A stretch of DNA of 64,000 nucleotides from an uncultured Azospirillum sp. (GTDB lineage Bacteria > Pseudomonadota > Alphaproteobacteria > RF32 > CAG-239), in NCBI GenBank assembly GCA_947301965.1, contig CAMYUM010000005.1:22128-86127 (forward strand), written 5' to 3'. Every line of letters starts with the position of its first letter. The first letter of the stretch is position 1. Position numbers and translations under genes: made by a program. Positions 3,201-21,696 of the stretch are shown here, piece after piece. The notes under the pieces were generated by a model. It was not told the origin of the DNA, did not search any database, and saw only the letters and a list, made by a program, of their open reading frames with translations.

Positions 3201-5004
3201 AACCTATGAGTTTACCGTCCTTATCGTAGGCTAATTTTTTGCCGTTTAAGGCTTTGCCCACAATTGTTCCGTCTCCGCTGACTATTGTGCCGTCGGGCAT
3301 AACCTTGCCAATAATATTGCCGTTAAAATCACGGACAATACCATCTTCATCAATATATCCGATAACATTGCCGTCTTTGTCGTAGGCAAACGCCTTAACC
3401 CGAGAATCTTTATCACCTTCAGAAGCGGCGCGACCGATTATGTTCCCCTCGCCGTCAACAATCATTCCGTTGGAGGATACGGTACCCAAAGATTTACCGT
3501 TTTCACCGATTGCGTTGCCGTCTTTATCAATGTAGCCGATTACTTTTCCGTCATCATTATATGCTAATAAAGACCCCGATGTGGTAAGCTCGTTACCGTT
3601 GTTGTCAACGATAGTTCCGTCAGGACGAGTTCTACCAATAGCGTTGCCGTTGAAATCTCTGACGGTGCCGTTTTCGTCGACATACCCGACGACCTGACCG
3701 TCATTATTGCGAACAAGACGGCGGTTAGCGCTGCGTGAAGGAGCATTTTTGCTTGCGACAACATTACCGTCTTTATCAACATTGCCGACAACATCACCAT
3801 TAGCATCAACTACCGAACCGTCAGGCATTACAACACCTATAATATTACCATCTTCATCGACGGCAACACGTCCGGTTTTGGTAACATGACCAATTACATT
3901 GCCGTTTTCGTCAACAACCTCACCTTTTTCATTAAGGCGACCGATTACATTGCCGTTCATGTCAACAACCGTACCGTCCGGCATTACCCGTCCGATAATA
4001 TTGCCATTGTCGTCATACACATATCCCATATCTACAGCATGACCGATTACGTTGCCATCATTATCAACAACCGTGCCGTCCGGCAGCATACGACCGATTA
4101 CGTTGCCATTTAAATCAACAACCGAACCGTCGGGGTTTACATAACCGATAACATTTCCATTTTGGTCAAATACCAACTTACGATTATTAGCAACACCAAT
4201 GATGTTGCCGTCACCATCTACGGCCAAGCCGTTTTCATTAATGCGGCCGATTACGTTGCCTTTAGAATCGTAGACATAACCTTCATCGTCAGCATACCCT
4301 ATTACCGAACCATCAGGACCGACTATTGTTCTTGATAGGGTTTCTCCTTTTTTGTTGGTTGCTTTAGAGCCTGAACCAGAACCTCCGCCAACCACATTCG
4401 TATCGCAGAAATTGCAATCTTCTTTGGTAACAGCATTCCCGAAAACCGGTACTTTTTCCGATTTGGCATTACTTTTAGCAAAATTGCTTTCATGCCAGGC
4501 AATGATGAAATTGTTTTGTACATTTCCGGTGGCAACCGGGGTCCATTCCATGGTAATATCGCAAGTTTCGGAACCGCGTAAAAGTCTGCCGGTACAATAA
4601 TCTTTAAAACTAAAGCCGTCAAAAGGAGCTTCCGCCAATTGTACGGATATAATATTGACAGAGGCTTTTCCGTTTGTGCCGATAGTTAAGACATTTTTGG
4701 CATCAGAACCGATAACAACCTGACCGAGAGCGACCGGGTTGGGTGTCGACGTAATCGGCGGTACTCCGTCATCAACTACCGTAAATTCTATACCGGTATC
4801 TTCAGAGGTTGAAGTTTCAACCTGAAGGGGATCGTCATTATCGGTAAAAACAGGGTCTGTATATTCGCTAGTTTTTTCTCCGCTTGAAAAAAGAAGGTAT
4901 AAACCAAGGAGAAAAATAACAAAAGAAGTTATACCAACCGCAAGAATTATGCGGTTGGTTTTTCTGATATAACTTTCCGAATGTGTTAATACTTCTTTAC
5001 TCAT
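295..5004 (-). CDS. Giant repeat protein in the VirB10/DotG position of the T4SS; N-terminal TM, Ig/ASH-like domain, then dozens of 17-aa repeats
   Basis: N-terminal TM (RIILAVGITSFVIFLLGLYLLF), beta-rich NPVALGQVVIGS...CDITMEWTP segment, then GNVIGRMLPDGTVVDND-type repeats to the C-terminus; ATG overlaps the end of the VirB9-like gene. Confidence 0.75.
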   Translation of the reverse strand: MSKEVLTHSESYIRKTNRIILAVGITSFVIFLLGLYLLFSSGEKTSEYTDPVFTDNDDPLQVETSTSEDTGIEFTVVDDGVPPITSTPNPVALGQVVIGSDAKNVLTIGTNGKASVNIISVQLAEAPFDGFSFKDYCTGRLLRGSETCDITMEWTPVATGNVQNNFIIAWHESNFAKSNAKSEKVPVFGNAVTKEDCNFCDTNVVGGGSGSGSKATNKKGETLSRTIVGPDGSVIGYADDEGYVYDSKGNVIGRINENGLAVDGDGNIIGVANNRKLVFDQNGNVIGYVNPDGSVVDLNGNVIGRMLPDGTVVDNDGNVIGHAVDMGYVYDDNGNIIGRVMPDGTVVDMNGNVIGRLNEKGEVVDENGNVIGHVTKTGRVAVDEDGNIIGVVMPDGSVVDANGDVVGNVDKDGNVVASKNAPSRSANRRLVRNNDGQVVGYVDENGTVRDFNGNAIGRTRPDGTIVDNNGNELTTSGSLLAYNDDGKVIGYIDKDGNAIGENGKSLGTVSSNGMIVDGEGNIIGRAASEGDKDSRVKAFAYDKDGNVIGYIDEDGIVRDFNGNIIGKVMPDGTIVSGDGTIVGKALNGKKLAYDKDGKLIGYVDDDGNVYDFAGNKIGKMLDDGTIVDNDGNVIGRAVQANKLAYDKDGKLIGYVDENGDVYDFNGNKIGKMLEDGTVVDENGDVIGHAPERLAYDKDGDLIGYVDENGDVYDFNGNKIGKMLEDGTIVDENGNVIGRGALPTELVYDKDGNVIGYVGEDGNVYDFAGNKIGQVLSDGTVIDPNSKIIGKAGPEKENGYRLAYDAQGRVMGYVDDDGTVRDFNGNIIGKMLPDGSIVDANGNVIGHAGLTPRQLAYDKDGKVIGYVDENGNVINFNGDAIGKMIPSGKLVDGKGNEIGTVGGFAKLLLDNNNKITGYIGKDGEVFDVEGNVTGYTDENGNIVSNTQTVLGRLIQEHMIPVTPQGEVLGTVNNNGTIENEDKQIVGRIQSNGLVKSPSGSKIIARLVRGGLVVGQGCKNIGYLEKDGLVRKSNQETGYKVNSDGVVIDDSGNYIGEVVAPGPVFDDTCTKIGDVETDGIVRQNGNYVGCVNPDGTVLNEKGDIIGGVARSGIAVSYDGNLLGKIVENGLVFSPQGQAVGCVGTYGDIFDKKGAYIGKVLQNTYAYDLEGNFIGMVNANARVPMRGQPSGRLLPNNVIIDENSKIIGVALPAKSAIIDAKGNILGRLFPDGNVYNGKGVSLGKIYGDGVGFYGQVNGYSIPVGQVADFSGKIVGSAGYNSEVVNRFGERLGKLDAKGFYFDDKGSLKGGLIRRGTAIGYDGSFIGYGLSDGRIIDLEGKVSGQSTPDGKVMNQKSVIVGEIISEGIVTDVWGTYKGHTDSLGDVIDLNGNNITAILPGGSTDKNLSLLKRGTVIDFAGKVIGSVMPDGSVIDTLNIKIGRALSDGNVLNNSGKLIGEIVDGDLVINSEDKIAGYINSDGSIIDRSGSIIGRTLSTDLAVDSEDGILGRIYKIGATILGNTGKYIGRLAADGNVIDTGNKIIGYLKSNGSFINLDKRVAGYALQEVAKNRRN
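2380..3560 (-). repeat. Higher-order repeat block (three 17-aa units plus linker, ~55 aa / ~165 nt) within the giant repeat CDS
   Basis: Near-identical copies of LAYDKDGKLIGYVDENGDVYDFNGNKIGKMLEDGTIVDENGNVIGR, also close at DNA level around 2780-3240. Confidence 0.8.
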
Positions 5005-6656
5005 TGGGTTCTGACTACACTACAAAATACACCACTTCGACCAAGTCTGCTGCAAACGCCGTCACCTTCTTCAAGTGATTTAACCGGTCCGACACGCAGG
5101 TGGAATAACTCTTTGCCCTGTCCATCTGCCGGAGCATCAACAGAGAAGAACGGATCATACTTTTTAAGCAATTTACCGTGCTTGTCGGAAAGATTGTCCC
5201 ACAAACTCTCCAGATTTTCGACATTGGCATCAGTACCGAGCTCAATTGAAATATTTGATCCGGAACCATCGCTAAAGCCTGAACCGTAACGATATTGGCT
5301 AGCAAAATTGCTGGCTGCGGGGTCAAATTGTTGAGTATTTTGAATCCGATGCATTTTTGAATAATCAAAATCTGTTCCGCCCGCACCGGCTCCGTATAAG
5401 CCTCCTTGTGCACCACCGCCGGCTCCGTTACCATATTGCGGAGCAATAATTGAGCTTCCGTCAACATTAATATTAACTTCACCATACGGTATATTGGCAG
5501 CACCATCAATCGGACCTGAACTGAAATCAGGGTACGAAGCACCACCGGCTTTTGATTGGGCTCCGGTCGGAATTTTGGCTCCGCGATCCCATTCTTTGTC
5601 GGTGACATCTTTAGCATAACTTACATCCTCAAGACCGGTATCATCAGAACGACGCATCTTCAGGCAGACAATCCTTTTGCCGTTACGCAAAACCATATCA
5701 CCGATTGCTTCAACAATAATTAAACGGTTGTTCGGACCTTTGGTACGAAAACCTACGGGAACCTCCATTCTTTCAACAATCAAAGTAACAATAGGACGTT
5801 GGGTCATGTTCAGAGATTTGCTGCCTAAATCAATATATGTAAATATGTCGTCACGCCAAACTCTTTCCGGTGCAATTACAACGTCATCAGGGTTCGGAAC
5901 GTAAACTTCGATATCAAAACGAAATTTGGTCGGATCAAGAGGAATACTCTCTATCCAATTGTTTTTTTGATTGCGTTTAGTAAACGTGGAATCAACAGAT
6001 TTTCCGCCCCCGCCATAATAAGAGGTTGCATTAACGTGTCCTCCCGCGGAAGCGGCGTTCCCGTTTCCCATTGCGCCGGCTCCACCATGACCGTTGTTAC
6101 CGCCGACAACTTCAATATCAACGATTGCATTGGTCAATCTTTCGGTATTTACACCCTCACTACGGACATAAAAGACATAACGATTGCCTGAACGTCCAAA
6201 AACGATAACGTTGGTGTCAACTCCGACGTTGGCTCCAGAGCGAGGATACAGCAACAAGGTACTGGGACCGGAAATTTGCCCGTCAAATGTAGAATTGTCA
6301 CCGATGTAGATATCTTCAATCATTTCCCACTCGGGGAAGTTGATCATGGTAATCATGCCTTCACGCAGGCGTAAGGGCAAAACCAAATCCGGCGACCAAT
6401 AATATTTTGAATACGCAGGCTTGCTTTGGCCTTCTCCGAGATTTTGCAAAGGATCAAGCCATGCGCTTTGCATCATTCCCAAAGAACTGAAGCCGGCATA
6501 GCTCATATCCATCGGCTGATATTGTCCGTTGGCCTGCGCCGCGCCCTGATCCATGCTGTTAACCGTTGCCTGGGCAAAAGAATCCTCGGCAAAGAAAACG
6601 CCGAATAAGGCTATAAAACCGATTTTAACATATTTTGACAGCATAATTTTATCCAT
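5001..6656 (-). CDS. VirB9/DotH-like outer-membrane core complex protein with C-terminal SPOR-like domain
   Basis: Signal peptide; VirB9-like N-domain (LRLREGMITMINFPEWEMIEDIYIGD...GNRYVFYVRS) and C-domain (APERVWRDDIFTYIDLG...DMVLRNGKRIVCLKMRR); C-term FHLRVGPVKSLEEGDGVCSRLGRSGVFCSVVRTQ resembles SPOR. Confidence 0.65.
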   Translation of the reverse strand: MDKIMLSKYVKIGFIALFGVFFAEDSFAQATVNSMDQGAAQANGQYQPMDMSYAGFSSLGMMQSAWLDPLQNLGEGQSKPAYSKYYWSPDLVLPLRLREGMITMINFPEWEMIEDIYIGDNSTFDGQISGPSTLLLYPRSGANVGVDTNVIVFGRSGNRYVFYVRSEGVNTERLTNAIVDIEVVGGNNGHGGAGAMGNGNAASAGGHVNATSYYGGGGKSVDSTFTKRNQKNNWIESIPLDPTKFRFDIEVYVPNPDDVVIAPERVWRDDIFTYIDLGSKSLNMTQRPIVTLIVERMEVPVGFRTKGPNNRLIIVEAIGDMVLRNGKRIVCLKMRRSDDTGLEDVSYAKDVTDKEWDRGAKIPTGAQSKAGGASYPDFSSGPIDGAANIPYGEVNINVDGSSIIAPQYGNGAGGGAQGGLYGAGAGGTDFDYSKMHRIQNTQQFDPAASNFASQYRYGSGFSDGSGSNISIELGTDANVENLESLWDNLSDKHGKLLKKYDPFFSVDAPADGQGKELFHLRVGPVKSLEEGDGVCSRLGRSGVFCSVVRTQ

Positions 6657-6657
6657 C

Positions 6658-7398
6658 TTATTGTACCTTATTAAAACTCAAAGAATAATTTGTAACCGTG
6701 AAGCCAATCGGATTTTTAAGACGCTCTTTGTGTTTTACGACTTTATGTCTGTACGTAACTCGCAAAGATGCTGTCCAATAATTGACTTCGGGGGTTTTGG
6801 AATCCGGAAACATATCTCTGGTCTCATATTCGACCTGCCAAATTCCCTGGCTAAGCTCGTTGACGGTCATAATGCGCACATCACGAATCATTCTGCGGGT
6901 GCGGATTAAATCAAGAGCACGATTGGCCGTATTTTTCAAAAAGTCATCATATACCGTTTGCGCCGACATTTCCTGAATCGCGCCGCCCGGCATCCACCTG
7001 GCCTCAACCTCTTTAATGTCACGATTGAAAGAACTGCGCATTAAAACATATTGGCGAACAAATACTTCCGTAATGTTTTTTGCCGCAGTCATGTTTCTGT
7101 TGAGCGGAACCAGGTTATAGACCTGTTCTTCTTTGTTTTGAAAAGTAAGCAGGAACGGTTCAACACGGTAGAGCGGAATAACCTGAGCAACCGCCAAAAG
7201 AAGGATTATGTTACAGCAAAAGCTTATTGCCGTAATTATGGCAAAGGCGCGAGCTGTCCACAAATATCTTTTTTCTGCCACGTTGGCAACAAATACATCT
7301 CCGGATGAAGATGGTTTGCTCTTGGCGGCAGGCGTGTTGCCGGGCAGAAGACGTTGATTATTGGGGGTATTTCCGATTGGTGTGGCCATACTTTTCAA
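6658..7398 (-). CDS. VirB8-like (DotI/IcmL/TrbF-type) inner-membrane T4SS protein, copy 1
   Basis: N-terminal TM, VEPFLLTFQ, C-term LKNPIGFTVTNYSLSF. Confidence 0.7.
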   Translation of the reverse strand: MKSMATPIGNTPNNQRLLPGNTPAAKSKPSSSGDVFVANVAEKRYLWTARAFAIITAISFCCNIILLLAVAQVIPLYRVEPFLLTFQNKEEQVYNLVPLNRNMTAAKNITEVFVRQYVLMRSSFNRDIKEVEARWMPGGAIQEMSAQTVYDDFLKNTANRALDLIRTRRMIRDVRIMTVNELSQGIWQVEYETRDMFPDSKTPEVNYWTASLRVTYRHKVVKHKERLKNPIGFTVTNYSLSFNKVQ

Positions 7399-7412
7399 AC
7401 TCTCCGAATAAG

Positions 7413-7601
7413 TTAAATAGTCTCAACAAACCAATCCGGCAAAGTGTGCGGGAGCTCAACCTGCAAGCAAGCACAAGGCGAAAGTTTGAGCTCGTCAGTT
7501 GCCTTACCGACTTCAACCGGTTCCGGCTCATAATAAGAACCGAAAAGGCCACAACCGGCCAATAATACGACAAATAAAAGAAGTATTATTTTTTTCATCA
7601 T
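7413..7601 (-). CDS. Small lipoprotein, VirB7-like candidate
   Basis: 62 aa with lipobox (LLFVVLLAGC) between two virB8-like genes. Confidence 0.55.
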   Translation of the reverse strand: MMKKIILLLFVVLLAGCGLFGSYYEPEPVEVGKATDELKLSPCACLQVELPHTLPDWFVETI

Positions 7602-7637
7602 AAGAATATTCCTCTGTTAACTATAGTTAGTTTGACT

Positions 7638-7665
7638 TTAGACTCTTTTTTTGTAAAAGTCTAAA
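7638..7665 (-). other. Intergenic stem-loop between virB8-like copy 2 and the lipoprotein gene
   Basis: TTTAGACT(c)TTTT...AAAAGTCTAAA inverted repeat; possible processing or attenuation element. Confidence 0.4.
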
Positions 7666-7691
7666 TATAACCAACTTATTAACAGGCAATA

Positions 7692-8447
7692 TTAAAATTG
7701 AACTTTTGCTTGATCGTATTTAACAACCGTAAAACCGAGGGGATTGAGCAAACGACGCCCCATAAATATACGTTCAGGAATAAAATATGCCGTAACCGAA
7801 GCAGTCCAATAACTTGTATTCAGGACCAAGTAGCCGCTTTTGTCGCTACGGTCTTTATTCGCAATTTCAAATGTCTTAAAATTCACTTTCCAAACCGCAC
7901 TACGTTTGCCACCGACACGTTGCGCAGATATAATTTCCACCTCTTGAGAAACTTCTTTTTTTTGATTAGACCTTTCAACAGCTTCAAGATTTTTGTTAAA
8001 CTCCTTGTATACGCTTGCACTGGATAAGAAGTTGACTATTCCGCCGGGATGCCAACGAGACATCATTTCAAGTTTATCATTAAGAATTGTATTGCGATAT
8101 ATGACATATTGACGAACAAAAGTTTCCATAAATTGTTCGCGCGATGCCATATTGTAGGCAATCGGCTCATAGCGGGCAATGTCTTCGGAACTGTTTTGAT
8201 TGATAATTAAAAACGGTTCAACCGTAACCATCGGAGCAAGCTTAAATAAAGCCAGTGATGCGGCGACAAAAACAATCAACGATATGGCTGCAGTAAAAAT
8301 AAACATACGCGACAGCCACAGGTAATAATACATTTTAACGCTGCGTTTTTCTTTTTCGGCCTGACCGAGAAAGTGGTATATTCTACCACTTTTGTCGGTC
8401 AAAGCCATTATTTTAGTGTTCTCAAGTATATTACCTAATTTACTCAT
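7692..8447 (-). CDS. VirB8-like inner-membrane T4SS protein, copy 2
   Basis: N-terminal TM, VEPFLIINQN, C-term LLNPLGFTVVKYDQAKVQF, parallel architecture to 6658-7398. Confidence 0.7.
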   Translation of the reverse strand: MSKLGNILENTKIMALTDKSGRIYHFLGQAEKEKRSVKMYYYLWLSRMFIFTAAISLIVFVAASLALFKLAPMVTVEPFLIINQNSSEDIARYEPIAYNMASREQFMETFVRQYVIYRNTILNDKLEMMSRWHPGGIVNFLSSASVYKEFNKNLEAVERSNQKKEVSQEVEIISAQRVGGKRSAVWKVNFKTFEIANKDRSDKSGYLVLNTSYWTASVTAYFIPERIFMGRRLLNPLGFTVVKYDQAKVQF

Positions 8448-8460: not shown

Positions 8461-11400
8461 CTAATACGGCATACATACCGGGCGTTCATAATTATCAATC
8501 TGTTCTTGGATAGAATCATAGCCTTCCTTACGAGATTTTTCAATTACTTTTTCGTTTGTTACCGCAGTCTTCATACTTTCCGTCAGAGAAGCTCCGGATT
8601 GAGTATTTGTCGTCAAACTGACTTTATACTTGCTGTCCTGCATCAGAGCTTTATATGTATTGTTCAATCTTTGATAACGCTCGTTAACCGTCTCGTTACC
8701 ATGATTGATTGAGCTCATAGAGCTTGAAATTCTGCCCATAAGAGTATTCTTTGTTTCCACAAGTTTTTTAGAAACATAATTAAAGTCACTTTCTGATGCA
8801 AAATTAATATCCTCTTTCAGCTTAAAGCCTATTTTATCAAACAATTCAACAATACTTGTTTTGAGGTTAGCCATATTGGCTTCCATTTCCTCAAGGTTCT
8901 TCTTGATGTCAAGCTCTTTGTCTACAAAGTGCAGGAAGTCACCGATTTGGTTGTTGGTAAACATCGCGCGCTGATAAATGTTGTCATCAGCATTAAGTTT
9001 ATATTTCCCGTTTTTCTCGGCTTCTTTCTCCTTTTTAATCAAGGTTGTAAAGCCATAATAAGGAAGTTTATTCATAGACAAGACGCCATCGTTATACCTT
9101 AAGAACATACCAAGCTCACTGTTGTTGGTATCGCTGATACCTCCGGCAGCATTACCAAGTGTTCTGCGATCTTTCTTCTTTTCAATATCAGCGTCATATA
9201 TGATATAGGTGTTAAGTGTATTTCCTATACCGATAGTTTGACCGTCTACGCGCAAATCCTTACATTCATAAAGTTTCTTATACCTTTGCATATTTGACGG
9301 TGACGAATTTTTCTGAATATCGACAACTGAATATTTACCGTTATCAGAAATGTCAATTATATAGTGACCTGAACGGCAAGGAAGTTGTGAGCCTCTGGCA
9401 AAGGCTTTACCTTCGCCGCCTTTTTCAAGAACAACATTAAGGTCGACACCTCTTTCGATAAACGCTTTATCAGAGAGGAGTAATTGCCAAATATACGGTT
9501 GTTCAAGTCCATATTCAAGAAAAGCATTACGATTGAGGCGACCGTCATCACTTACATCAAGACGTTTGTAGTCTGTCGTATCCAAGTGGATCATGTCACG
9601 AACCGGAGGATAGTGGGCGACGAGCGGAGCTTTGGGCGCCGTAAAGTCGCGTGCTTTGGCCGGTAATCCGACAAAATATTGCTCATCCCCGGCATCACAG
9701 CTGTACTGTGCACAAATCTCACTTAAAGAAGGTTTGAACAAATTCTGCAAGAGAGGAATTATGCTTTCCGGACTTACACTCAATGATCCGATGGCGGAAG
9801 CGACACTCTTTTCAAAGCAATTGCGGGGCAAGCTTTGCAGCGTGGTAATCAAGTTGGAGTGCTTTTGAACAACTCCGGAGTGATTACTATTTAGATACAA
9901 AACGTCATTGGCTTTCATTGCTGACAAATCTTCTTCGTGATTTTCAATAAACTTGATTGCACAAGTGCGTGCCGTACCGATTAAGCCGTCAGCTTTACTG
10001 ATAAACCCAAGAGCGTCGCCGTCAGATATGCCGACACTTTGTGCGATTGTTGATAGAAGCGGGGCAATCTCAGGATTGTTTTGCAGTGCAATCATTTGGG
10101 CATCATAGTCGCTTTCGATTGAAATTATCTCATGTTGATATCTGTCCTTAATTTCTTTAATTTGGGCATTCAACCTATCAATAGCGGCTTCTACTTTATC
10201 GCGCTCAAGTTCGTATTTTTTAAGGGTAATACGTTTTTCGCCGAGTTCTTCTACGTTTTCAGCATATGATTCAGTCGCATTTGCAAATGTATCTTTTGCT
10301 TCTTTGTACAAAGAGGAATCAGACGGCGTGCCGCGATTGTTCATAGATTCAATTTGTCTGTTAGCGCTTTCGGCACGAGATTTATTATACGACGATTGCT
10401 GATTTAAGCCGTTAATTTCTTCCGTAATTTCAACGATAGATTCAGTCCATGCGTCAAGTTTTTCATCCAAACTGTCTTTTTGATTGTAGTACGGAGCAAG
10501 CTCGTTGGCTTCTGCCTGTCTGATTTGACTCAGCTTTTGAGTTTTTTCGGCCAAAAGTTTGCTGGATGCTTTTAGCGGAGGTTCCATATTTTCCATCGCG
10601 CTTGCCAACTGTCCCAAAGCGGTAGCTGTAGCATCTTTGTCTTCGCCTTCTTCCTGTCCGCTATTAAACATTTGAGCGATAGATAATGCAACTTTGGTAA
10701 AATCAAGCTCTCGCAAATATGCTTTCATATCTCCATATTTGCCGCTGATATATTGATCATAATAGCTGCGTTGGTCGTTCCAAATCGGGAACGGGTTCGC
10801 GGCTTTGCCATAAGCGGGTTGGTCTTTATACTGGTCTGCAACTAATTCCATAGCCGCTTTTCTACCGATTATCCAATTCAGCAGTTCAACTTCGCGAACA
10901 GAATCCGAATACTCCTGATCATGGCTGGGTTTGTTATATGATTCTTCTACCCGTTTATCCTCGTTTTCTTTTGCGAGTTGGTCAGGGTCAACATCTACTA
11001 AAGTTTCACTATCTTCTTCTGTGTTTATGTCATAGTTAGAAAATGAGTTTACGTCAATTGCAGTACCGGCATCATTATTCGCTGATTGATAGGCGGTAAT
11101 AGCCCATTGAGACATACCTTTACGAGAGTTGTAATCACAGGCGTTTTGGGGGGCTTTTGCCTGTCCGAACCACACGTTGTTAGGCTCGGAATAATGGCGT
11201 CCGAGATATCTGATTACGCAGACATCGGCTTCTCTTACAGCCTCGACCGATCTTTCGTGAAGTTTTTTGTAAAGGCTATACTGCTTATACATTGCTCTAT
11301 ATTCGGGCATACGCTGCAACATGTTGTGAACATCAAGTGCAGAGTTAACAATTTCTTGTGTATTTGCAATTTGTTTTAGGGCTTCAAGTTCGGCTTCGCT

Positions 11401-12321
11401 GCCTTCAAGTTGAGCAGAAGTGGCTGGAACTGGCGCTTCAACAAAGCGGTCGGCTGATTTGCCTTTGTCCGCAGTTTCTTTTTGAGTGTTTTCGGCACTG
11501 GCTTCTTCCTCGTTACTTGACGGGGCGGCGGCTTCCTTTGACATATATTGAGCAAACATCAACTCAATGCTTCCGCTTAATTCAGAAGTTTTTATTGATG
11601 ATGTGTCTTTGTTTTCTTTCTTCATTTCTGCCGGCAATACCTGTCTCCCGCCATGCATCATGCTCGCAGCATAATATTGGTTGCGCATGGCCACGAGTTC
11701 CTCTGTAATTTTTAAGATATCATTCATCTTGCGGGCTGCCATATAAGTGTTATAGTCAACACCGTTTTCTTCTTCCGAGTTGGCGGTTGAACCTTCTCCG
11801 TCTGAAGTCATTGCTTCTTCGGTAAAGGCTTCTACCTCTTTACGATATCTTCCTAAATCAGTTTCCAGCCTATCAAGCGCAGTTCTCACTTCAACTAGTG
11901 TATCATAGTAAAATTGCTCGGCTTTTTGCTCATATGCTTTCTTTATGCGGGGATCATCTGACGGATATTGTAAAAACAACTCATGAAATGCGGTTTTAAC
12001 AGCATCATAGTCGTACACATCAACCGAACCTCCCATGTCAAAATCTTTGGTTCCCGGGATTTTGCTGACAAGCTTGGTAATCGTTCCTCTCAACTTGTCT
12101 GTTGTTGATTTTACGGCTGTTAACGCCTTTTTGACGTTGGCAACGACTTCTTCTTGTATTGTGGCCAAATATTGTTCAACTTGCTGAATAGTCGATTGGA
12201 CATCGCCCGGAGCATCAAAAGATATACCGAACAAAAGTTGCGCATCCGCCGGTTTGGACATTAAGAGCCCGCCGGTCACGACACAAACAGCTAGAAAAAT
12301 ACGGCTAAAAATTTTTTTCAT
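8461..12321 (-). CDS. Large secreted coiled-coil protein (1286 aa) in the VirB5 position
   Basis: Signal peptide (MKKIFSRIFLAVCVVTGGLLMSKPADAQ), long charged coiled-coil stretches, no obvious TM after the signal. Confidence 0.6.
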   Translation of the reverse strand: MKKIFSRIFLAVCVVTGGLLMSKPADAQLLFGISFDAPGDVQSTIQQVEQYLATIQEEVVANVKKALTAVKSTTDKLRGTITKLVSKIPGTKDFDMGGSVDVYDYDAVKTAFHELFLQYPSDDPRIKKAYEQKAEQFYYDTLVEVRTALDRLETDLGRYRKEVEAFTEEAMTSDGEGSTANSEEENGVDYNTYMAARKMNDILKITEELVAMRNQYYAASMMHGGRQVLPAEMKKENKDTSSIKTSELSGSIELMFAQYMSKEAAAPSSNEEEASAENTQKETADKGKSADRFVEAPVPATSAQLEGSEAELEALKQIANTQEIVNSALDVHNMLQRMPEYRAMYKQYSLYKKLHERSVEAVREADVCVIRYLGRHYSEPNNVWFGQAKAPQNACDYNSRKGMSQWAITAYQSANNDAGTAIDVNSFSNYDINTEEDSETLVDVDPDQLAKENEDKRVEESYNKPSHDQEYSDSVREVELLNWIIGRKAAMELVADQYKDQPAYGKAANPFPIWNDQRSYYDQYISGKYGDMKAYLRELDFTKVALSIAQMFNSGQEEGEDKDATATALGQLASAMENMEPPLKASSKLLAEKTQKLSQIRQAEANELAPYYNQKDSLDEKLDAWTESIVEITEEINGLNQQSSYNKSRAESANRQIESMNNRGTPSDSSLYKEAKDTFANATESYAENVEELGEKRITLKKYELERDKVEAAIDRLNAQIKEIKDRYQHEIISIESDYDAQMIALQNNPEIAPLLSTIAQSVGISDGDALGFISKADGLIGTARTCAIKFIENHEEDLSAMKANDVLYLNSNHSGVVQKHSNLITTLQSLPRNCFEKSVASAIGSLSVSPESIIPLLQNLFKPSLSEICAQYSCDAGDEQYFVGLPAKARDFTAPKAPLVAHYPPVRDMIHLDTTDYKRLDVSDDGRLNRNAFLEYGLEQPYIWQLLLSDKAFIERGVDLNVVLEKGGEGKAFARGSQLPCRSGHYIIDISDNGKYSVVDIQKNSSPSNMQRYKKLYECKDLRVDGQTIGIGNTLNTYIIYDADIEKKKDRRTLGNAAGGISDTNNSELGMFLRYNDGVLSMNKLPYYGFTTLIKKEKEAEKNGKYKLNADDNIYQRAMFTNNQIGDFLHFVDKELDIKKNLEEMEANMANLKTSIVELFDKIGFKLKEDINFASESDFNYVSKKLVETKNTLMGRISSSMSSINHGNETVNERYQRLNNTYKALMQDSKYKVSLTTNTQSGASLTESMKTAVTNEKVIEKSRKEGYDSIQEQIDNYERPVCMPY

Positions 12322-12356
12322 TTGTTTTCTCCTTTACTACTGTCAATGTCGACGCA

Positions 12357-13577
12357 TTACTCTTTTGTTGCGGATGCCGAAATATCGGCAAGTCCGGCCG
12401 CAACTGCCGGTTCTGATGCGGCAGTAATAGAACTGTCTAACGGGGTTCCCTGTGTTGCCGGAGATAATGTTACGTCGTCAACATCATACTCAGGATCTTC
12501 GGGATTAAACTTATAATTATCAAAGTTAAAGTTATCTACTGCCGTAGTGGCATTGATTTTTTGGAAACCGCTGTTTGACAAATCATAACTTATATCCAAT
12601 TTGAGTCTTTGTAACACCAGTTCTGCATAGTCTAGTAACGCTAACATGTTAGCCTTTTTCAACTCAAGCGATGCTGCGGCATTGGCAGATGTAGAACCCT
12701 CAAGGGTGCTACTGGCGGCTTGATTGACGGTTTGAGCGTTTTCATTATTGGCAACCAACTGAGCACGAATAGCCGTGGCTCGTTGCATAGCTGTATTAAG
12801 ATCTTGCCAATGCATAGAATCATATCTTTCTTTGTAGGCATAAACAATGTTGCTCGTAACTCTGGTATCTTGAGCCGGAGATAACATTTTTACAGTATCT
12901 TTCAGATCCTCAACTGAATTATAGTTTTTGGGTAACGGATTAAAATCTGAAAGTATTGCTTTCAGTTCGGCACGGGCAGCATCTTTCATATCATTAAACC
13001 CTTGCAATGCCTTGTTCAGTGCATCGTTTATGCCTGTGGTTTCGTTTTGGGCATTGGCGATTATTTCGTCTTTTTTGGCAATCAGCTCACTTATTTTTGC
13101 AGTGTTGGCCACAGCATGATCGGGATTAAGCAGACTGTCCTGTGACAGTTTATTAATGTTGTCATTAATGCTTTTTTCCTTTTCAGCCGCTTCTTTTGCA
13201 ATGGCTCCTGCCTCTTGAGCGGCTTTATCTTTGGCTTCGGTCTTCTGAATGTCTATTTTCTTGATTTTTGATGACAAAACCGAAATTTGCCGATAATCGG
13301 CACCTAAAATATTTTGAATGGAGTCAAAGTTTACGCTTTTTACAAAATCATAAGCCTCACGAGCTCCCTCGCCGATTTGGATAATGGTTTGCATGATATT
13401 ACTTTCCATAACCATTTTATAAGCTTTATCAACTTTAGTCTTGATGGTTGTATAGCCCTTTTGCAAACTGTTGACGAGGTCCACTTTGAAAGGCGGCAAC
13501 AAAAAAGCTTCAGCTTTCAGCGGAAAAAGCGAAAACAGAATGGAAGCCGCAATTATGATTGACTTTATTTTTTTCAT
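12357..13577 (-). CDS. Secreted coiled-coil protein, possible VirB5-like
   Basis: Signal peptide (MKKIKSIIIAASILFSLFPLKAEA), helical/coiled-coil composition, overlaps the start of the next gene. Confidence 0.5.
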   Translation of the reverse strand: MKKIKSIIIAASILFSLFPLKAEAFLLPPFKVDLVNSLQKGYTTIKTKVDKAYKMVMESNIMQTIIQIGEGAREAYDFVKSVNFDSIQNILGADYRQISVLSSKIKKIDIQKTEAKDKAAQEAGAIAKEAAEKEKSINDNINKLSQDSLLNPDHAVANTAKISELIAKKDEIIANAQNETTGINDALNKALQGFNDMKDAARAELKAILSDFNPLPKNYNSVEDLKDTVKMLSPAQDTRVTSNIVYAYKERYDSMHWQDLNTAMQRATAIRAQLVANNENAQTVNQAASSTLEGSTSANAAASLELKKANMLALLDYAELVLQRLKLDISYDLSNSGFQKINATTAVDNFNFDNYKFNPEDPEYDVDDVTLSPATQGTPLDSSITAASEPAVAAGLADISASATKE

Positions 13578-14236
13578 TGATTGCCTCCTTCTTTTTCATC
13601 TTCTTCATCCGCTTCAGGAACTCTCAAATTGGCGGCGATAAGACGACGCTGAAACTCGTTAAGCGAACTTTGCATATCTAAAATTCGTGTAAAGCGACGA
13701 GCAGTTTCCATGGTTTCTTTCTTCAGCATTTGCTTGGTAGCACGGTTGTTTTCAAGCAACGACGGTTGGTCGTCTCCACTTTCTCTGTCTTTGGCCATTC
13801 CGGTACGAAGAGTAAATGCGTAGGCATACAATCGACTCAAATCTTCACGCATAATGTCCGCATTGTTATTTTCGTTGGCAACAGAAACTACTATTTGATC
13901 CTTTTTACCAATATTGGCCATGGTGCCTTTTTGGATAGCTTTTTCCAAATTGCGAAGGTTTCCAAGATTTTCTGACACAATCGGAAGCGTGCGAACAGGG
14001 ATGTTTTTGAAATTGAGTTTGCTTGATACTTCAAACAATTTGCCTAAAGGTCCTTGGCGCAACGCATTCAATTGACTTTCAATTTTCTGATATTTTTCCT
14101 GAATGACCTGAGCTTTCTTTTGAATGTTTTCAATAACACTCAAAACCGTTTCAACTAGCTCAAAGTCAGCCCTGGCATCGGGAATGACCGACATCCAAAA
14201 GCATAAAGCCAACAATGTCAGCAGTATTTTTTTCAT
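13574..14236 (-). CDS. Secreted coiled-coil protein, possible VirB5-like
   Basis: Signal peptide ending ARA; FELVETVLSVIENIQKKAQVIQEKYQKIESQLNAL. Confidence 0.5.
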   Translation of the reverse strand: MKKILLTLLALCFWMSVIPDARADFELVETVLSVIENIQKKAQVIQEKYQKIESQLNALRQGPLGKLFEVSSKLNFKNIPVRTLPIVSENLGNLRNLEKAIQKGTMANIGKKDQIVVSVANENNNADIMREDLSRLYAYAFTLRTGMAKDRESGDDQPSLLENNRATKQMLKKETMETARRFTRILDMQSSLNEFQRRLIAANLRVPEADEEDEKEGGNQ

Positions 14237-15681
14237 TATTGACCTCCATTTGAGCTTTCAGATTTTTCGCTATCTACCAATATATTTTTTGAAGTCGCAC
14301 AGATTTGCTGTACTCCCTGAAGAAGGATGGCTGCTGACTCTAACATATTCATCTGATTTAATAATTTTTGAGTTTCTTCTCCGTTCATTCCAATTACGCC
14401 GGTATCGTCACGAATTGTGCTGCTTTCGGCACCGAGTTTGTCTTGTTTGTCAAGAGTGTCGGTATAATTAGATGCCTCATATTTAGCTTTTGTTGATTCA
14501 GAAAGCAGGGCAACCACGGCTTCATAAACCATGGTTTCACAGTCCTTACGACTGTTAATAGCATCTTCTTGGTCTTTGGCGTTGTTTTCTGCAACAATTT
14601 TGGTTGCACAGGACTTCATACCATCGTAACTGACTAAATCTTTAACGCTCAAATCGCATCTTTTGGCAAACGGAGTTATAAAAGTTCCTTTTGAGTCATA
14701 ATTAACGCCTTTTTCGTTACTGATTTCAGCAGCAAATACCTGACGGCTGGTAAAACTGAGTTCACTGCTTGAAATCTTGTCAAGTTGTATCGGTTCACGC
14801 AATTTTGACGGAGATATTCTGAATTTTGGACTGGGTTCTTTTGTGGCAGAATCAGGAGAAATAGATTCAGTGGCAGCATCTGAAGAAATTGTATCAACAG
14901 CAGCTTTTGTTGCTGCGCCTGCCGGGGTTGAGGGAGTTCCCAAATCGATTTCCGTCGAAATATCGTCCGAAGAAGCGAAAGGCTGACGACCGGTTGATGG
15001 GTTTGCACTATTGGTGGTGTTGCCCGGTTTGGCATCAAATATGCCAGGGAGATCAGAACTGTTTGTTCCGTTAGTCGTATTACCGCTTGACGGTCCGGCA
15101 TCGACTACATTGCTGCCGGAGGTTGTATTACCGCTTGACGGTCCGGCATCGACTACGCTGTTGCCGGCAGTGGTGTCATTTTTTGATGTTTCCGTAGTAG
15201 AAGTTGTATCGGGATCATAATCAGCGTCGTTTTCTGCGCTATAGTCTTCAGAATATCCGCCGTTTTCCGTTTCTGAACTATCATTATAGTTTTCTTTTTT
15301 AGGATTCAGCTGATCAAGGAGAGCCTGGTATTTGGCTTTGCGGGCTTCAATTTCATTTTTATATTTATTGTAAGCCGCCTTGCCCTCTTGAATTCGAGCT
15401 TGAGCTTCTTGAGCTAATTGTAAGGCTTTTTGAATGTTCTCACCAAACAAATCTTTGAATTTGCTTAATGTTCCGGCAGCGTCACCTATTGTTGAAAGTA
15501 GCGAACTGCCGTTGGTAATGATTTCAACAGCTTGCATAACACCGGTTGCGCCATTAATAACAATACCGATTGTACCTGCAATGTTACCGGGGTCTAATGT
15601 GACCAACGCTTTTGCCGGTGATGACGTCATAATAATCGCCGCGCATGCCGAAACCATAGTAATAGACTTAATTTTTATCAT
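14236..15681 (-). CDS. Secreted protein with helical N-terminus and low-complexity Ser/Thr/Asn linker
   Basis: Start set at MIKIKSITMVSACAAIIMTSSPAKA (SD GGGAGG just upstream); contains VVDAGPSSGNTT repeats. Confidence 0.5.
   Translation of the reverse strand: MIKIKSITMVSACAAIIMTSSPAKALVTLDPGNIAGTIGIVINGATGVMQAVEIITNGSSLLSTIGDAAGTLSKFKDLFGENIQKALQLAQEAQARIQEGKAAYNKYKNEIEARKAKYQALLDQLNPKKENYNDSSETENGGYSEDYSAENDADYDPDTTSTTETSKNDTTAGNSVVDAGPSSGNTTSGSNVVDAGPSSGNTTNGTNSSDLPGIFDAKPGNTTNSANPSTGRQPFASSDDISTEIDLGTPSTPAGAATKAAVDTISSDAATESISPDSATKEPSPKFRISPSKLREPIQLDKISSSELSFTSRQVFAAEISNEKGVNYDSKGTFITPFAKRCDLSVKDLVSYDGMKSCATKIVAENNAKDQEDAINSRKDCETMVYEAVVALLSESTKAKYEASNYTDTLDKQDKLGAESSTIRDDTGVIGMNGEETQKLLNQMNMLESAAILLQGVQQICATSKNILVDSEKSESSNGGQ
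15077..15156 (-). repeat. 48-bp-period direct repeat in the linker of the 14236-15681 gene
   Basis: gtattaccgcttgacggtccggcatcgactac at 15077-15108 and 15125-15156. Confidence 0.85.
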
Positions 15682-15760: not shown

Positions 15761-18193
15761 TCAGGCTAAATTTAAATATTTTGTAACAAAGTTTTCTTCG
15801 CCATACTGTCTTATGAGGTCTTCAACCAGCAAAACATTCTTGCGGCTGGAGTTATAAAGCTTAAGATACGGACCGAGTCCGCTTAAATTGACATCCAAAA
15901 TAACCGACTCTCCCGTCGCCGGACGTGAAAGCAAAATTGCATACGGAAATTCACGATATGATTTACCGAAAACAAAATCTATTTCTCGTTGGTTGAGATT
16001 CCAGTTTTCATAGTCCTCAGGACGAGCTTGCGGGTTACGGAAGAAAATTACGGTCTGGCATTGACCGCGAATAACCTCGCCAACCCCTAAAGAGTCAATA
16101 ATATTCGGTTGTTGGAAAGCGCAAAGGTAAGCTTGGCGTTTTTTACGTCCTTCTTGCAGACCTATAATAAAGTAGTCGCGGAACATCGGGTGCTTTAACA
16201 TAGGTGCGGTTTCATCAATCATAATCAGTGAAGGAACACCTGTTTCACCGGTTTCGGACTGAATACGGTGCATGATATAACTGATGACCGCAGGAGCCAA
16301 TGTGTCATCTTCAAAAATGTGAGTAAAGTCAAATGCCATAAAGCGTTTGCTGTGCAAATCAAGGCTATCGGTAGTGGCATTAAAAATTTTGCCGTATTGG
16401 TCCGGATTGACCCAACGATAAAGCTCTCGGCGCATGTTCCCGGTCGGCGAAAAACAGCTTTTATATAAATTGCTCATAACACGTTCTTCAGGACGAAGAT
16501 AATCAAATGCCGTAGTTACGGCACGAGCAATTTCTCGCTCAGAAAGAGCATCATCAACCATGGTAATCGACTTCATCCAACGACGCAAAAATGCACGGTT
16601 ATTAGGTGTTGGAGAGGCATCAAACGGGTTAAGCGACACATTTTTCTCATCCCCGTCAAAACCAATATATGCTCCGCCAACCGCACGAGTGAAAATTTCC
16701 GCACCCAAGTGACGGTCGAAGAAAAATACTTTAAGGTCTTTGTGGCGCATGGCCTGTCCGGCCAAAAACGTCAGCAAAGTCGTTTTACCTTGACCGGTAG
16801 GTCCGATAATACAACAGTGAGCAACCGCCGCTTCTTCAGAAGATACGTGGAACTGAAAACGATAGCCGGATCCGGTGGTGGTGCGGAATGTCGTAATCGC
16901 TCCGGGACCCCAGTCACTCTTATTGAAGCCTTCGGCCGGCTTGTCAAAAGAAATTGCCGCCGTAACCACGCGTGATAAATATAAGTATGCCCGAGGATAA
17001 ATTTCGTATGTCGGAAATTGGTTAAAGAATGTTGCTTGGGCAACCCAGCCCTCACGAACCGGGGTAACACCAAACAAACGACAAATTCTTTGGACTTCGC
17101 TTTCCGCAAAGTCTATCTCTTCTTTGCTGTCACCGCGCAAAACTATGGCCATTGCATATTGTGTCAAAGCCTGGAAGTTGGCATCACTATCCTCAATCGA
17201 ACTCATGGCATAGCTGTATTGATCAATAACGTCTTGAGAAAAACTGGTCATGCGCGCCATGTTGCGCTGTTGTATCAACAAACCTCTGGCCGCGGGACGA
17301 TAAATCGGCTTTATGTTATGCAAAAGGGTTAATTCGCTATCTATTGCCAACAATGAAACAATCATTGACTCGTCCATGTAGTCGCTCGATGCGCGAATCC
17401 CCATGGTGATGGCTAATTTTTCCTTATCCCCGGAAAAGAAACGTATAAGACCGTTTTCACCGGTAAAATGAATATGGTCGGAAGTCAGCAATTCATTAAG
17501 TTGTGCGCCCTCCGCGTTACCGACTTTGGGGTCAGGCTTGGATATCGGACTGCATAAACGACTGAAAACATGAAACGGACTGTCCAAGGCGGAGCTGTCT
17601 TCGCTTTCAAACATGGCACGGACACCATATTCACTAAGGGTTGCCAGTAAAGATTGCGAAGCATAATTCAGGTCTTTGAGCGCATCAGGACGATCCGGAA
17701 CCGACACTATTATGTAGTGTGAGTTGGTATAAACTCGATTTAATGTTGATTGCCAAGTGTAGGCGACTTTTTCGAGAATTTGATTGTCAAAGGTATTTTC
17801 TATGACATCGGCAGGAATACGTTCGCGCAGTGTAAGCACGCGTGCGGTAATTTGCAAATCCGACATGCTGTCAATCCACGCTTTGCGCGCTTCGGCCATG
17901 GAAATAATTTTTTCTTCGGTGGCAAAGGCCAAGTCCATCCCTTCAACCTGGAATACACGGCAAAATGAGCCGTTATAGCAACGAATGGTCATGCCGTCGG
18001 ACATCAGCTTATTAAAAGGCAAAAAGTCGGAAACACGCGACTCATTCGGTTGGGGTAAAACAGCGCGTCCGATTTTGGTAATCCATAAACCGGCAAAGGC
18101 AGCGGCTGAAATAAAGCCTAGTATTGTTACAAAAACCTCTTTGTTGCTTAACCCCTGCACAAAGATGCTGAAAAAATCAAAATCAGGGTGCAA
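15761..18193 (-). CDS. virB4: T4SS ATPase, VirB4/TrbE family
   Basis: Walker A GPTGQGKTTLLTFLAGQ, Walker B LIMIDETAPML; overlaps virB3-like gene. Confidence 0.88.
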   Translation of the reverse strand: MHPDFDFFSIFVQGLSNKEVFVTILGFISAAAFAGLWITKIGRAVLPQPNESRVSDFLPFNKLMSDGMTIRCYNGSFCRVFQVEGMDLAFATEEKIISMAEARKAWIDSMSDLQITARVLTLRERIPADVIENTFDNQILEKVAYTWQSTLNRVYTNSHYIIVSVPDRPDALKDLNYASQSLLATLSEYGVRAMFESEDSSALDSPFHVFSRLCSPISKPDPKVGNAEGAQLNELLTSDHIHFTGENGLIRFFSGDKEKLAITMGIRASSDYMDESMIVSLLAIDSELTLLHNIKPIYRPAARGLLIQQRNMARMTSFSQDVIDQYSYAMSSIEDSDANFQALTQYAMAIVLRGDSKEEIDFAESEVQRICRLFGVTPVREGWVAQATFFNQFPTYEIYPRAYLYLSRVVTAAISFDKPAEGFNKSDWGPGAITTFRTTTGSGYRFQFHVSSEEAAVAHCCIIGPTGQGKTTLLTFLAGQAMRHKDLKVFFFDRHLGAEIFTRAVGGAYIGFDGDEKNVSLNPFDASPTPNNRAFLRRWMKSITMVDDALSEREIARAVTTAFDYLRPEERVMSNLYKSCFSPTGNMRRELYRWVNPDQYGKIFNATTDSLDLHSKRFMAFDFTHIFEDDTLAPAVISYIMHRIQSETGETGVPSLIMIDETAPMLKHPMFRDYFIIGLQEGRKKRQAYLCAFQQPNIIDSLGVGEVIRGQCQTVIFFRNPQARPEDYENWNLNQREIDFVFGKSYREFPYAILLSRPATGESVILDVNLSGLGPYLKLYNSSRKNVLLVEDLIRQYGEENFVTKYLNLA

Positions 18194-18473
18194 ATTTGTT
18201 CCCCTTTTCTTTATACAAATTATTGGTTGAGCGATATGTCGTTCCGAAAGCCTGAATCATGTTGGAAATATGTGGTTCCTTAGCCCCCCATAAAATTATT
18301 GCACTGTGGCAGGATATGATAGTTGCCACAAAAACCAGCGGATTAATTTCAAACATTGCAAGCGCGCCAAACATCATGGGAAACTGCAGTCCGAGGTTAA
18401 GTAACACCGGAAGATATGGTCCCCACAAAATCTTCGGAGGATTGGCAACAGCTTTCAATATAGGCTCTCTCAT
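18183..18473 (-). CDS. virB3: VirB3-like T4SS inner-membrane protein
   Basis: 96 aa, hydrophobic N-terminal half, directly upstream of and overlapping virB4. Confidence 0.7.
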   Translation of the reverse strand: MREPILKAVANPPKILWGPYLPVLLNLGLQFPMMFGALAMFEINPLVFVATIISCHSAIILWGAKEPHISNMIQAFGTTYRSTNNLYKEKGNKFAP

Positions 18474-18608: not shown

Positions 18609-19022
18609 TTAGGGGTCAGATTTTGGACATTCTCCACCGCCACATTTTCCGCCACCCGGACTGTCGTTAGGAACTGTACTGTTGTGAGTGGGGGTGTTAT
18701 CTTTATATTCAAGCTCACCCTGCGCAGTATCATCACCGGTAAAATGACTGATAAACAGCCCCATCGCTGCAACCAAGAACAAACTGAAACTAATAGTTGC
18801 CAAGTGCTTAAAACTTATACGTCCAAATATTGCAGCAAAAGTAAAGCAACCAAGGCCCAGGCCTCCGATAACATAAACAATGCCGCGTACATCTTTCAAT
18901 GTTTCATAAACTTTATCTTTTACTGTTTCAAAAATATTGGCCGCTGCGGCATCAGAAACCAGCGCCACGCATAAAATAAGCGAAAGTGTCGTTATAATTC
19001 CGAGATTATATAGTTTTTTCAT
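18609..19022 (-). CDS. VirB2/TrbC-like pilin with Gly/Cys-rich C-terminal tail
   Basis: Signal peptide plus two hydrophobic segments (DVRGIVYVIGGLGLGCFTFAAIFGRISFKHLATI); ATG at 19022 preceded by GAGGGAGGG. Confidence 0.65.
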   Translation of the reverse strand: MKKLYNLGIITTLSLILCVALVSDAAAANIFETVKDKVYETLKDVRGIVYVIGGLGLGCFTFAAIFGRISFKHLATISFSLFLVAAMGLFISHFTGDDTAQGELEYKDNTPTHNSTVPNDSPGGGKCGGGECPKSDP

Positions 19023-19033
19023 CGCACCCTCCC

Positions 19034-19369
19034 TCATTTTAGTGTATCGGTAATGTTGACTATTTCTTCACCAACCATATATTCAATAATGCCGGAAGTA
19101 AGAGCAATAACCATCAATCCGATAATAATCGCACCAAGCCACTTCCAGTTAAAATTACCAAAAAAACCACCGACAGCAATAGCGATAATACCAAAACCTG
19201 CAACGGCAAAGATTATATCGCGCATACCTTCAAAAATTTCGCCACCTTTTGCGGTTAAGTCCGCAAACAAACCGCCGTCAGCAAACGAGTTGGTTGCAAA
19301 TAAAATTGAAGAAAACGCAAACACCATCAGCGTTAACAAAACAATTTTCTTTAATTTTATGTACAACAT
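19034..19369 (-). CDS. VirB2/TrbC-like pilin paralog
   Basis: Signal peptide; MRDIIFAVAGFGIIAIAVGGFFGNFNWKWLGAIIIGLMVIAL. Confidence 0.7.
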   Translation of the reverse strand: MLYIKLKKIVLLTLMVFAFSSILFATNSFADGGLFADLTAKGGEIFEGMRDIIFAVAGFGIIAIAVGGFFGNFNWKWLGAIIIGLMVIALTSGIIEYMVGEEIVNITDTLK

Positions 19370-19422
19370 TCTACTCTCCGTATTAAAATTGTGGTAAGAG
19401 GGGGCAGAGCCCCCCCTGTTTA

Positions 19423-19782
19423 CTACATTCCGCCTGCGGCGCCTTCAAATGTGTCGCTAACACCACTGTTAGTAAGACCATCACCCATTTGACTACCGGC
19501 AGAGTATTGAACAACCGCATTAGCTGCAGCCAATACAGCCAAGCCTACAGCCAATCCGGCAAACCATTTCCAGTTTACTTTACCGAAGATAGCGGCAAAA
19601 GCGACGGCAACCAAACCAAAACCACCAAGAATAAACACGATGGTTCTGACGTTTGTGAACAATGTTACCATTTTTTGAGATGCAACATCCATTACTGTTG
19701 CGCAAGCATCGCCAGTCATAGCAATGAAGGCCACCATAGCAAAGGTAACTAAAGCCCACATATTCTTACTAATAAATCGCAT
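19423..19782 (-). CDS. VirB2/TrbC-like pilin paralog
   Basis: Signal peptide; VRTIVFILGGFGLVAVAFAAIFGKVNWKWFAGLAVGLAVLA. Confidence 0.7.
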   Translation of the reverse strand: MRFISKNMWALVTFAMVAFIAMTGDACATVMDVASQKMVTLFTNVRTIVFILGGFGLVAVAFAAIFGKVNWKWFAGLAVGLAVLAAANAVVQYSAGSQMGDGLTNSGVSDTFEGAAGGM

Positions 19783-21640: not shown

Positions 21641-21696
21641 TAACATTTTGAGCGCGCTTGATTATTTTTTTTCAGCTTGTATGATGGTATAAAATT

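What the first reader, a model, noticed from the sequence alone, without database searches (positions are those of the whole stretch)
8461..15681. Four consecutive secreted coiled-coil proteins, including a 1286-aa one, occupying the VirB5 position
Canonical loci have one small VirB5. Here four signal-peptide proteins (1286, 406, 220, ~481 aa) with coiled coils sit between virB4 and virB8, with stop/start overlaps. They may form an enlarged pilus tip, adhesin or extracellular filament.
Basis: partly seen in the sequence, partly recalled or inferred. Interest (0 to 1): 0.6.

Follow-up and report, generated by a model that had tools for sequence, protein, structure and literature searches.

The report
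Enlarged multi-gene VirB5 region of T4SS
In a family of uncultured gut and rumen bacteria, the single small protein thought to cap a secretion machine's pilus is replaced by a fixed row of four to seven fast-changing secreted proteins, one of them a giant with a previously undescribed module that is present and absent together with the machine.

Summary
Four signal-peptide proteins (481, 220, 406 and 1286 aa; here A, B, C, D) lie between virB4 and virB8 on the minus strand. Two of the three junctions overlap. This is a lineage-wide design: 49 of 49 complete virB4–virB8 intervals fetched from related genomes hold A, B, C, D in that order (4–7 genes), and 92 of 109 good genomes of the family encode D. 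Sixteen of the 17 genomes lacking D also lack this VirB4; the exception is broken by a contig end. So they are T4SS parts.

The VirB5 link is good for A: the VirB5/TrbJ N-terminal motif sits just behind its signal peptide (57 of 106 A-class proteins, 9.4 expected), and VirB5/TrbJ models are the top NCBIfam hits of relatives. It is moderate for C and for D's N-terminal ~200 residues, a separate gene in one sublineage. B is linked mainly through the C-terminal hairpin it shares with A and C. No window protein reaches a VirB5 cut-off.

D's remaining ~1000 residues form a confidently modelled module with no PDB match; its core recurs in several other alphaproteobacterial families. Best reading: an enlarged, hetero-oligomeric VirB5-type stalk/pilus tip. 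Surface or adhesin function is untested.

The parts
14236..15681 (-). Protein A, 481 aa, secreted; probable divergent VirB5 (first gene after virB4)
   Evidence: VirB5/TrbJ N-motif LVTLDPGNIAGTIG directly after the signal peptide (11.1 bits, next best place -2.6)
15565..15606 (-). VirB5/TrbJ-type mature N-terminal motif of A (residues 26-39 of the 481-aa form)
13574..14236 (-). Protein B, 220 aa, secreted, VirB5-sized; shares a C-terminal helical hairpin with A and C
   Evidence: AF2 model pLDDT 76, pTM 0.48, long helices 27-61, 114-152 and 164-202
12357..13577 (-). Protein C, 406 aa, secreted; shares a C-terminal hairpin with B
8461..12321 (-). Protein D, 1286 aa, secreted; VirB5-like N-terminal module plus large C-terminal module
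11626..12240 (-). D residues 28-232: VirB5-like module, a separate 223-235 aa signal-peptide gene in loci L093, L094, L103, L107, L111
8464..11481 (-). D residues 281-1286: conserved large module (D2), confidently predicted fold without a PDB match
   Evidence: pLDDT 86.7, pTM 0.77; no Foldseek match at E <= 0.001
10078..10569 (-). D residues 585-748: predicted antiparallel coiled-coil hairpin (two ~79-residue helices), absent or shorter in distant relatives
15761..18193 (-). virB4 (810 aa), upstream neighbour of the four genes
18183..18473 (-). virB3-like (96 aa)
   Evidence: (PF05101 E 0.03, below cut-off) and position
18609..19782 (-). three VirB2/TrbC-like pilin genes in tandem
   Evidence: PF04956
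7692..8447 (-). virB8 copy 1, downstream neighbour of the four genes
   Evidence: PF04335
6658..7398 (-). virB8 copy 2
   Evidence: PF04335
5001..6656 (-). virB9/CagX protein with C-terminal SPOR domain
   Evidence: PF03524, PF05036

Best explanation
The four genes encode an expanded VirB5 complex of a chromosomal VirB/VirD4-type T4SS. Each protein is exported by the Sec pathway (inferred from the signal peptide). A is the VirB5 counterpart; C and the N-terminal ~200 residues of D, and less surely B, carry related VirB5-like helical bundles. D also carries a ~1000-residue module (D2) containing a predicted ~12-nm coiled-coil hairpin, which was joined to its VirB5-like part by fusion, or separated from it in one sublineage. 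By analogy with R388, where a VirB5 pentamer sits on VirB6 and is pushed out by the VirB2 pilus (PMC9259494), the proteins would assemble as a mixed cap on the stalk built by this genome's several VirB6-like proteins, with D2 extending from it towards the outside or the target cell. Shown: secretion signals, fixed gene order, joint presence and absence with the T4SS, fast evolution, and the VirB5 N-motif in A. Inferred: the hetero-oligomer, tip location and target contact.
For: 49/49 complete virB4-virB8 intervals hold A-B-C-D in order. D2 is in 95/112 family genomes and all 14 genera; 16 of the 17 genomes without it also lack this VirB4, and the other is cut by a contig end. The VirB5/TrbJ N-motif is the best match just behind the signal peptide in A 57/106 (9.4 expected, p 6e-32), D 15/73 (2.8, p 8e-8), C 16/66 (5.2, p 5e-5), B 16/64 (9.2, p 0.02). 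HHalign without signal peptides: A vs VirB5 N-terminus P 1.3e-5, A vs TrbJ 4e-5; A-B 5e-7, B-C 3e-5, A-D1 7e-4; reversed controls 0.02-0.4. Top NCBIfam hits of relatives are VirB5 (E 5e-4, 1.5e-3) and TrbJ (E 8e-5). D1 and D2 are separate genes in one sublineage. VirB6-like proteins are multiple (three TrbL matches), as are VirB2 (three) and VirB8 (two). A-D identity is 31-55% where VirB4 is 80-91% identical. VirD4 is present and no relaxase was found.
Against: PF07996 has no match in this genome at E <= 1, and no window protein reaches any VirB5 cut-off. Hits of VirB5 HMMs to the interval are partly coiled-coil bias, because reversed models and reversed proteins also hit it. Foldseek of the B model found no VirB5 structure, and the model's pTM is low. 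B's N-terminal signal is weak. D2 itself shows no VirB5 similarity. Nothing here shows extracellular location.
Confidence: 0.6

Rival explanations
1. The proteins build an enlarged periplasmic central cylinder (channel wall) of the T4SS, as proposed for IcmX with DotA in Dot/Icm, and are not displayed on a pilus tip.
For: [quoted passage not shown] This system has several large VirB6-like proteins and giant beta-flower VirB10-side proteins, which suggest a large periplasmic assembly. D2 has conserved cysteines.
Against: A-D evolve much faster than the rest of the machine, which fits exposed parts better than channel walls. R64 TraW, taken here from memory to be the IcmX counterpart, shows no profile similarity to A-D (single sequence, weak test).
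Confidence: 0.22
2. The four are long-coiled-coil secreted proteins without common descent from VirB5: a separate T4SS-linked surface or envelope assembly that replaced VirB5.
For: No curated VirB5 family match in the window, coiled-coil bias in HMM searches, no Foldseek match.
Against: Position-controlled N-motif test in A, C and D; reversed-profile controls fail while forward ones succeed; relatives hit VirB5/TrbJ models first in NCBIfam.
Confidence: 0.13
3. They are secreted cargo (effectors or an independent adhesin/filament) that merely sits in the T4SS operon.
For: Secreted, fast-evolving and coiled-coil rich.
Against: Fixed order between two structural genes in every complete interval and joint loss with VirB4. 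The D core sits in the same interval in other alphaproteobacterial families. Cargo loci are usually scattered and patchy (general knowledge).
Confidence: 0.05

Closest known systems
VirB5/TrbJ family (R388 TrwJ, pKM101 TraC, TrbJ; PF07996, TIGR02791, TIGR02780)
   Same: Sec signal, position near virB4, A's mature N-terminus LVTLDPGNIAG versus (I/V)PV(I/V)DxxNLAQ, mainly helical; B has the size and a three-long-helix layout
   Different: Four to seven proteins instead of one; A, C and D are much larger; below all curated cut-offs; D carries a ~1000-residue extra module
Bartonella Trw T4SS (PMC2883598)
   Same: Multiplied pilin (VirB2/TrwL) and VirB5 (TrwJ) genes that diversify faster than the rest of the locus, in Alphaproteobacteria; proposed host-specific adhesion
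   Different: Bartonella copies are tandem duplicates whose number varies between species; here the four are strongly differentiated and in fixed order; Trw lacks VirD4, this genome has a VirD4-like protein
H. pylori Cag T4SS CagL (with CagI/CagH, from memory)
   Same: Several secreted proteins tied to the tip or pilus; CagL is a VirB5 counterpart structurally (PMC9259494)
   Different: No sequence relation seen in PDB sequence searches; Cag has no giant VirB5-linked protein (from memory)
Dot/Icm IcmX-DotA (VirB5/VirB6 of T4BSS; PMC12857230)
   Same: A VirB5-position protein that works with a large VirB6
   Different: R64 TraW (IcmX counterpart, from memory) shows no profile similarity to A-D; gene set here is VirB-type with TIGR00929-like VirB4
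Rickettsia rvh T4SS (PMC2653234)
   Same: Alphaproteobacterial chromosomal T4SS with several VirB6 copies
   Different: rvh lacks VirB5 altogether; here the VirB5 position is multiplied

Membership tests
VirB5/TrbJ family | Sec signal peptide, exported soluble protein | tested here: met
   Hydrophobic N-segment in all four window proteins, no later strong TM segment; 46/55, 53/56, 53/56 and 54/56 homologues of A, B, C, D pass a simple hydrophobicity test; no dedicated signal-peptide predictor was available
VirB5/TrbJ family | Encoded next to virB4 and virB6/virB8 of a T4SS | tested here: met
   Between virB4 and virB8 in 49/49 complete intervals
VirB5/TrbJ family | Matches the curated family models above cut-off (PF07996, TIGR02791, TIGR02780) | tested here: not met
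   No match in G000; relatives reach only E 8e-5 to 2e-3, below cut-off, though VirB5/TrbJ models are their best NCBIfam hits
VirB5/TrbJ family | Conserved mature N-terminus (I/V)PV(I/V)DxxNLAQ | tested here: met
   Met for A (57/106 vs 9.4 expected); partial for D and C; weak for B
VirB5/TrbJ family | Single domain of about 200-250 residues | tested here: not met
   Only B (220 aa) and the D N-terminal module have that size
VirB5/TrbJ family | Three-helix bundle with globular appendage | tested here: inconclusive
   B model has three long helices with small helices after the first, pLDDT 76, pTM 0.48; no Foldseek match to a VirB5 structure
VirB5/TrbJ family | Pentamer on VirB6, located at the pilus tip | not testable with these tools
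   Needs complex prediction or experiment
IcmX/TraW family | Sequence-profile similarity to IcmX/TraW | tested here: not met
   R64 TraW vs all A-D profiles P 0.3-0.8; single-sequence query, so weak
Conjugative T4SS | Relaxase in the same genome | tested here: not met
   PF03432 no match, PF08751 best E 0.15; other relaxase families not searched
VirB/VirD4 T4SS | VirB2, 3, 4, 6, 8, 9, 10, 11 and VirD4 present | tested here: met
   VirB3 assigned by position with a weak PF05101 match, VirB11 by a PF00437 match (T2SSE family) and position; VirB7 not identified

The most novel reading that the evidence does not exclude
D2 founds a new class of T4SS component, so far undescribed: a large secreted module, with its core conserved across several alphaproteobacterial families, that is physically joined to a VirB5 tip protein and projects a long coiled-coil arm, so that the machine carries a composite tip of three or four distinct VirB5 proteins plus an arm that contacts the target cell.
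Probability: 0.35. Interest if true: 0.75.

Novelty: new variant of a known kind. Interest (0 to 1): 0.58.

Why it matters
How VirB5 and the T4SS tip recognise target cells is poorly understood, and the known structures have a single VirB5. A lineage of uncultured gut Alphaproteobacteria that multiplied VirB5-position, VirB6, VirB2 and VirB8 genes together, and attached a ~1000-residue conserved module to one of them, offers a natural dissection of the tip: four fixed classes, one with a natural gene split, and about a hundred genomes for coevolution tests. It also gives D2, a marker present and absent together with the machine, although no effector or target is known.

Tried and rejected
Pfam and NCBIfam scans of A-D: only chance coiled-coil hits. 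PDB sequence searches with B and D2 profiles: coiled coils and other chance matches only. Simple VirB5 HMM enrichment was dropped as evidence by itself, because reversed controls gave similar enrichment; it was replaced by a position-controlled motif test. HHalign with signal peptides left in gave inflated scores and was redone on mature sequences. Foldseek of the B and D2 models in the PDB: no significant match. R64 TraW/IcmX kinship of D: no signal. Conjugation as the function: no relaxase of the two families searched. Papers on a T4SS of this bacterial family: none found in the open library.

Full report
**Observation.** In transcription order they are A (481 aa from the ATG at 15681, 496 aa by the first ATG), B (220 aa), C (406 aa) and D (1286 aa). 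The 481-aa start of A has a good ribosome-binding site and begins the signal peptide. A/B overlap by 1 nt and B/C by 4 nt; C/D are 35 nt apart. All four have an N-terminal hydrophobic segment typical of Sec signal peptides and no later strong transmembrane segment.

**Setting.** In transcription order the locus runs: three VirB2/TrbC-like pilins, VirB3-like, VirB4, A-D, two VirB8s, VirB9/CagX with a SPOR domain, a 1569-aa beta-flower repeat protein, a 1433-aa beta-flower plus VirB10 (TrbI) protein, and a T2SSE-family ATPase taken as VirB11. Further along the contig lie large VirB6-like proteins: three TrbL matches (1010, 432 and 1006 aa), one fused to an M23 peptidase. VirD4 is on another contig. 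Relaxase models PF03432 and PF08751 find nothing convincing, so a protein-delivery or adhesion role is more likely than conjugation. The genome is 1.29 Mb. Relatives fetched by VirB4 are uncultured gut and rumen Alphaproteobacteria, including 'Azospirillum sp. CAG:239'.

**Conservation and co-occurrence.** Eighty loci were fetched by VirB4 alone, so D's presence was not selected for. Sixty-six contain D. The other 14 end within 4.8 kb after virB4. All 49 loci that reach virB8 contain A, B, C and D in this order, with 4 to 7 genes in the interval. Across 112 genomes of the family, 95 (all 14 genera) carry the D2 module; among genomes at least 90% complete and at most 5% contaminated it is 92 of 109. 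Of the 17 without it, 16 also lack this VirB4. The seventeenth (G011) has VirB4 and a D fragment at a contig end. D2 and the T4SS are therefore kept or lost together. A profile of D2 also finds shorter relatives (about 530-810 aa) in other alphaproteobacterial families. Where flanks are available they lie in the same virB4-virB8 interval, directly after virB4 and its followers, or directly before virB8, behind other signal-peptide proteins mostly of 210-420 aa. Two low-scoring matches (L248, and L249, where no T4SS gene was recognised nearby) are not counted. A-D are fast-evolving: 31-55% identical where VirB4 is 80-91% identical.

**Are they VirB5?** No curated VirB5 model matches the window proteins. 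A VirB5 profile built here from 27 VirB5 and 27 TrbJ proteins hits the interval more than elsewhere, but reversed controls do so nearly as well, so that enrichment is mostly coiled-coil composition. A position-controlled test is cleaner. The VirB5/TrbJ motif at the mature N-terminus was scored along each protein, and the question was whether its best place lies just behind the signal peptide. It does in 57 of 106 A-class proteins (9.4 expected, p 6e-32), 15 of 73 D-class (2.8, p 8e-8), 16 of 66 C-class (5.2, p 5e-5) and 16 of 64 B-class (9.2, p 0.02). These p-values treat related proteins as independent, so they overstate significance. In the window's own A the motif is LVTLDPGNIAGTIG, 11.1 bits against -2.6 for the next best place; in the window's own B, C and D it is not the best place. 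Profile-profile comparison without signal peptides gives A versus VirB5 P 1.3e-5 and versus TrbJ about 4e-5 (reversed controls 0.1-0.4). It also shows a shared C-terminal hairpin between A and B (5e-7), B and C (3e-5) and A and the D N-terminus (7e-4; reversed 0.36). NCBIfam names VirB5 (E 5e-4 and 1.5e-3) or TrbJ (8e-5) as top hit for three relatives in this interval.

**D is two things.** In loci L093, L094, L103, L107, L109 and L111 the N-terminal part of D is a separate signal-peptide protein (223-235 aa in five of them, 514 aa in L109; for example ...LFDPGSLATQ...), followed by a 1168-1248 aa protein with D2; the one inspected (L041, a locus with the same gene sizes as L109) has its own signal peptide. 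So D1 is a VirB5-sized unit. D2 (residues 281-1286) is modelled with mean pLDDT 86.7 and pTM 0.77: helical N-part, a hairpin of two ~79-residue helices (about 12 nm at 1.5 A per residue), then a mixed alpha/beta part. No PDB structure matches at E <= 0.001, and D2 has no VirB5 similarity. Distant relatives lack much of the middle, so the core is roughly D residues 306-551 plus ~1130-1286.

**B model.** AlphaFold2 gives three long helices (27-61, 114-152, 164-202) with small helices after the first. TraC is described as three bundled helices with a globular appendage (PMC2653234), so the layout is compatible. Confidence is moderate (pTM 0.48) and Foldseek finds nothing, so the structural test is inconclusive.

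**Mechanism (inferred).** In R388 a VirB5 pentamer docks on a VirB6 pentamer, VirB2 is thought to insert between them, and VirB5 ends at the pilus tip (PMC9259494). Here VirB2, VirB5-like, VirB6-like and VirB8 genes are all multiplied. The simplest reading is a mixed stalk and tip with A as VirB5 proper, B, C and the D N-terminus as partners, and D2 as an outward module. Bartonella Trw is the nearest functional precedent: its amplified TrwL and TrwJ vary most and are proposed to decide erythrocyte specificity (PMC2883598). The main rival is an enlarged periplasmic cylinder like IcmX-DotA (PMC12857230).

**Verdict.** Real, conserved and coupled to the machine. A is probably a divergent VirB5; the set may work like VirB5 but is not filed as members, because curated-model and size criteria are not met. 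D2 is an unnamed T4SS-linked family as far as these libraries show. New variant of a known kind.

Noticed in passing
window 295-5004 and L003 8119-12420: Two giant beta-flower repeat proteins (1569 aa; and 1433 aa with a C-terminal TrbI/VirB10 domain) form the VirB10 side of this T4SS, recalling the repeats of DotG.
   Followed up: partly
window 18609-19782: Three tandem VirB2/TrbC-like pilin genes, and two virB8 genes (6658-8447): several components are multiplied, not only VirB5.
   Followed up: partly
L002 1564-11348: Three large TrbL/VirB6-like proteins (1010, 432, 1006 aa; the last with an M23 peptidase domain) plus an 800-aa protein without a match, reminiscent of rickettsial VirB6 multiplication.
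   Followed up: no
window 20075-33258: Divergent R64-like type IVb pilus cluster (TcpQ/PilL, secretin, PilO, ATPase, PilR-like, three PilS/bundlin-type pilins) with a sulfatase-family gene (30872-32635) between the pilins.
   Followed up: partly
window 5001-6656: VirB9/CagX protein carries a C-terminal SPOR (peptidoglycan-binding) domain.
   Followed up: no
L241, L242, L243, L244: In another alphaproteobacterial family the D relative ends the T4SS block and directly adjoins genes that look like the ATP synthase operon.
   Followed up: no
L087 (JAISVX010000001.1): A record titled 'Lactobacillaceae bacterium' carries this alphaproteobacterial T4SS locus; the organism label looks wrong.
   Followed up: no
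L146 12508-13290: The A protein of this relative matches Pfam DUF4141 (PF13605, E 8e-7), and the window's A weakly (E 0.15); DUF4141 may be a VirB5-related signal-peptide region.
   Followed up: no
G001, G754, G755, G756, G758, G763 and ten others: Sixteen genomes of the family, eight of them in one genus (g12), lack both this VirB4 and D, so the T4SS seems dispensable in some hosts or lifestyles.
   Followed up: partly
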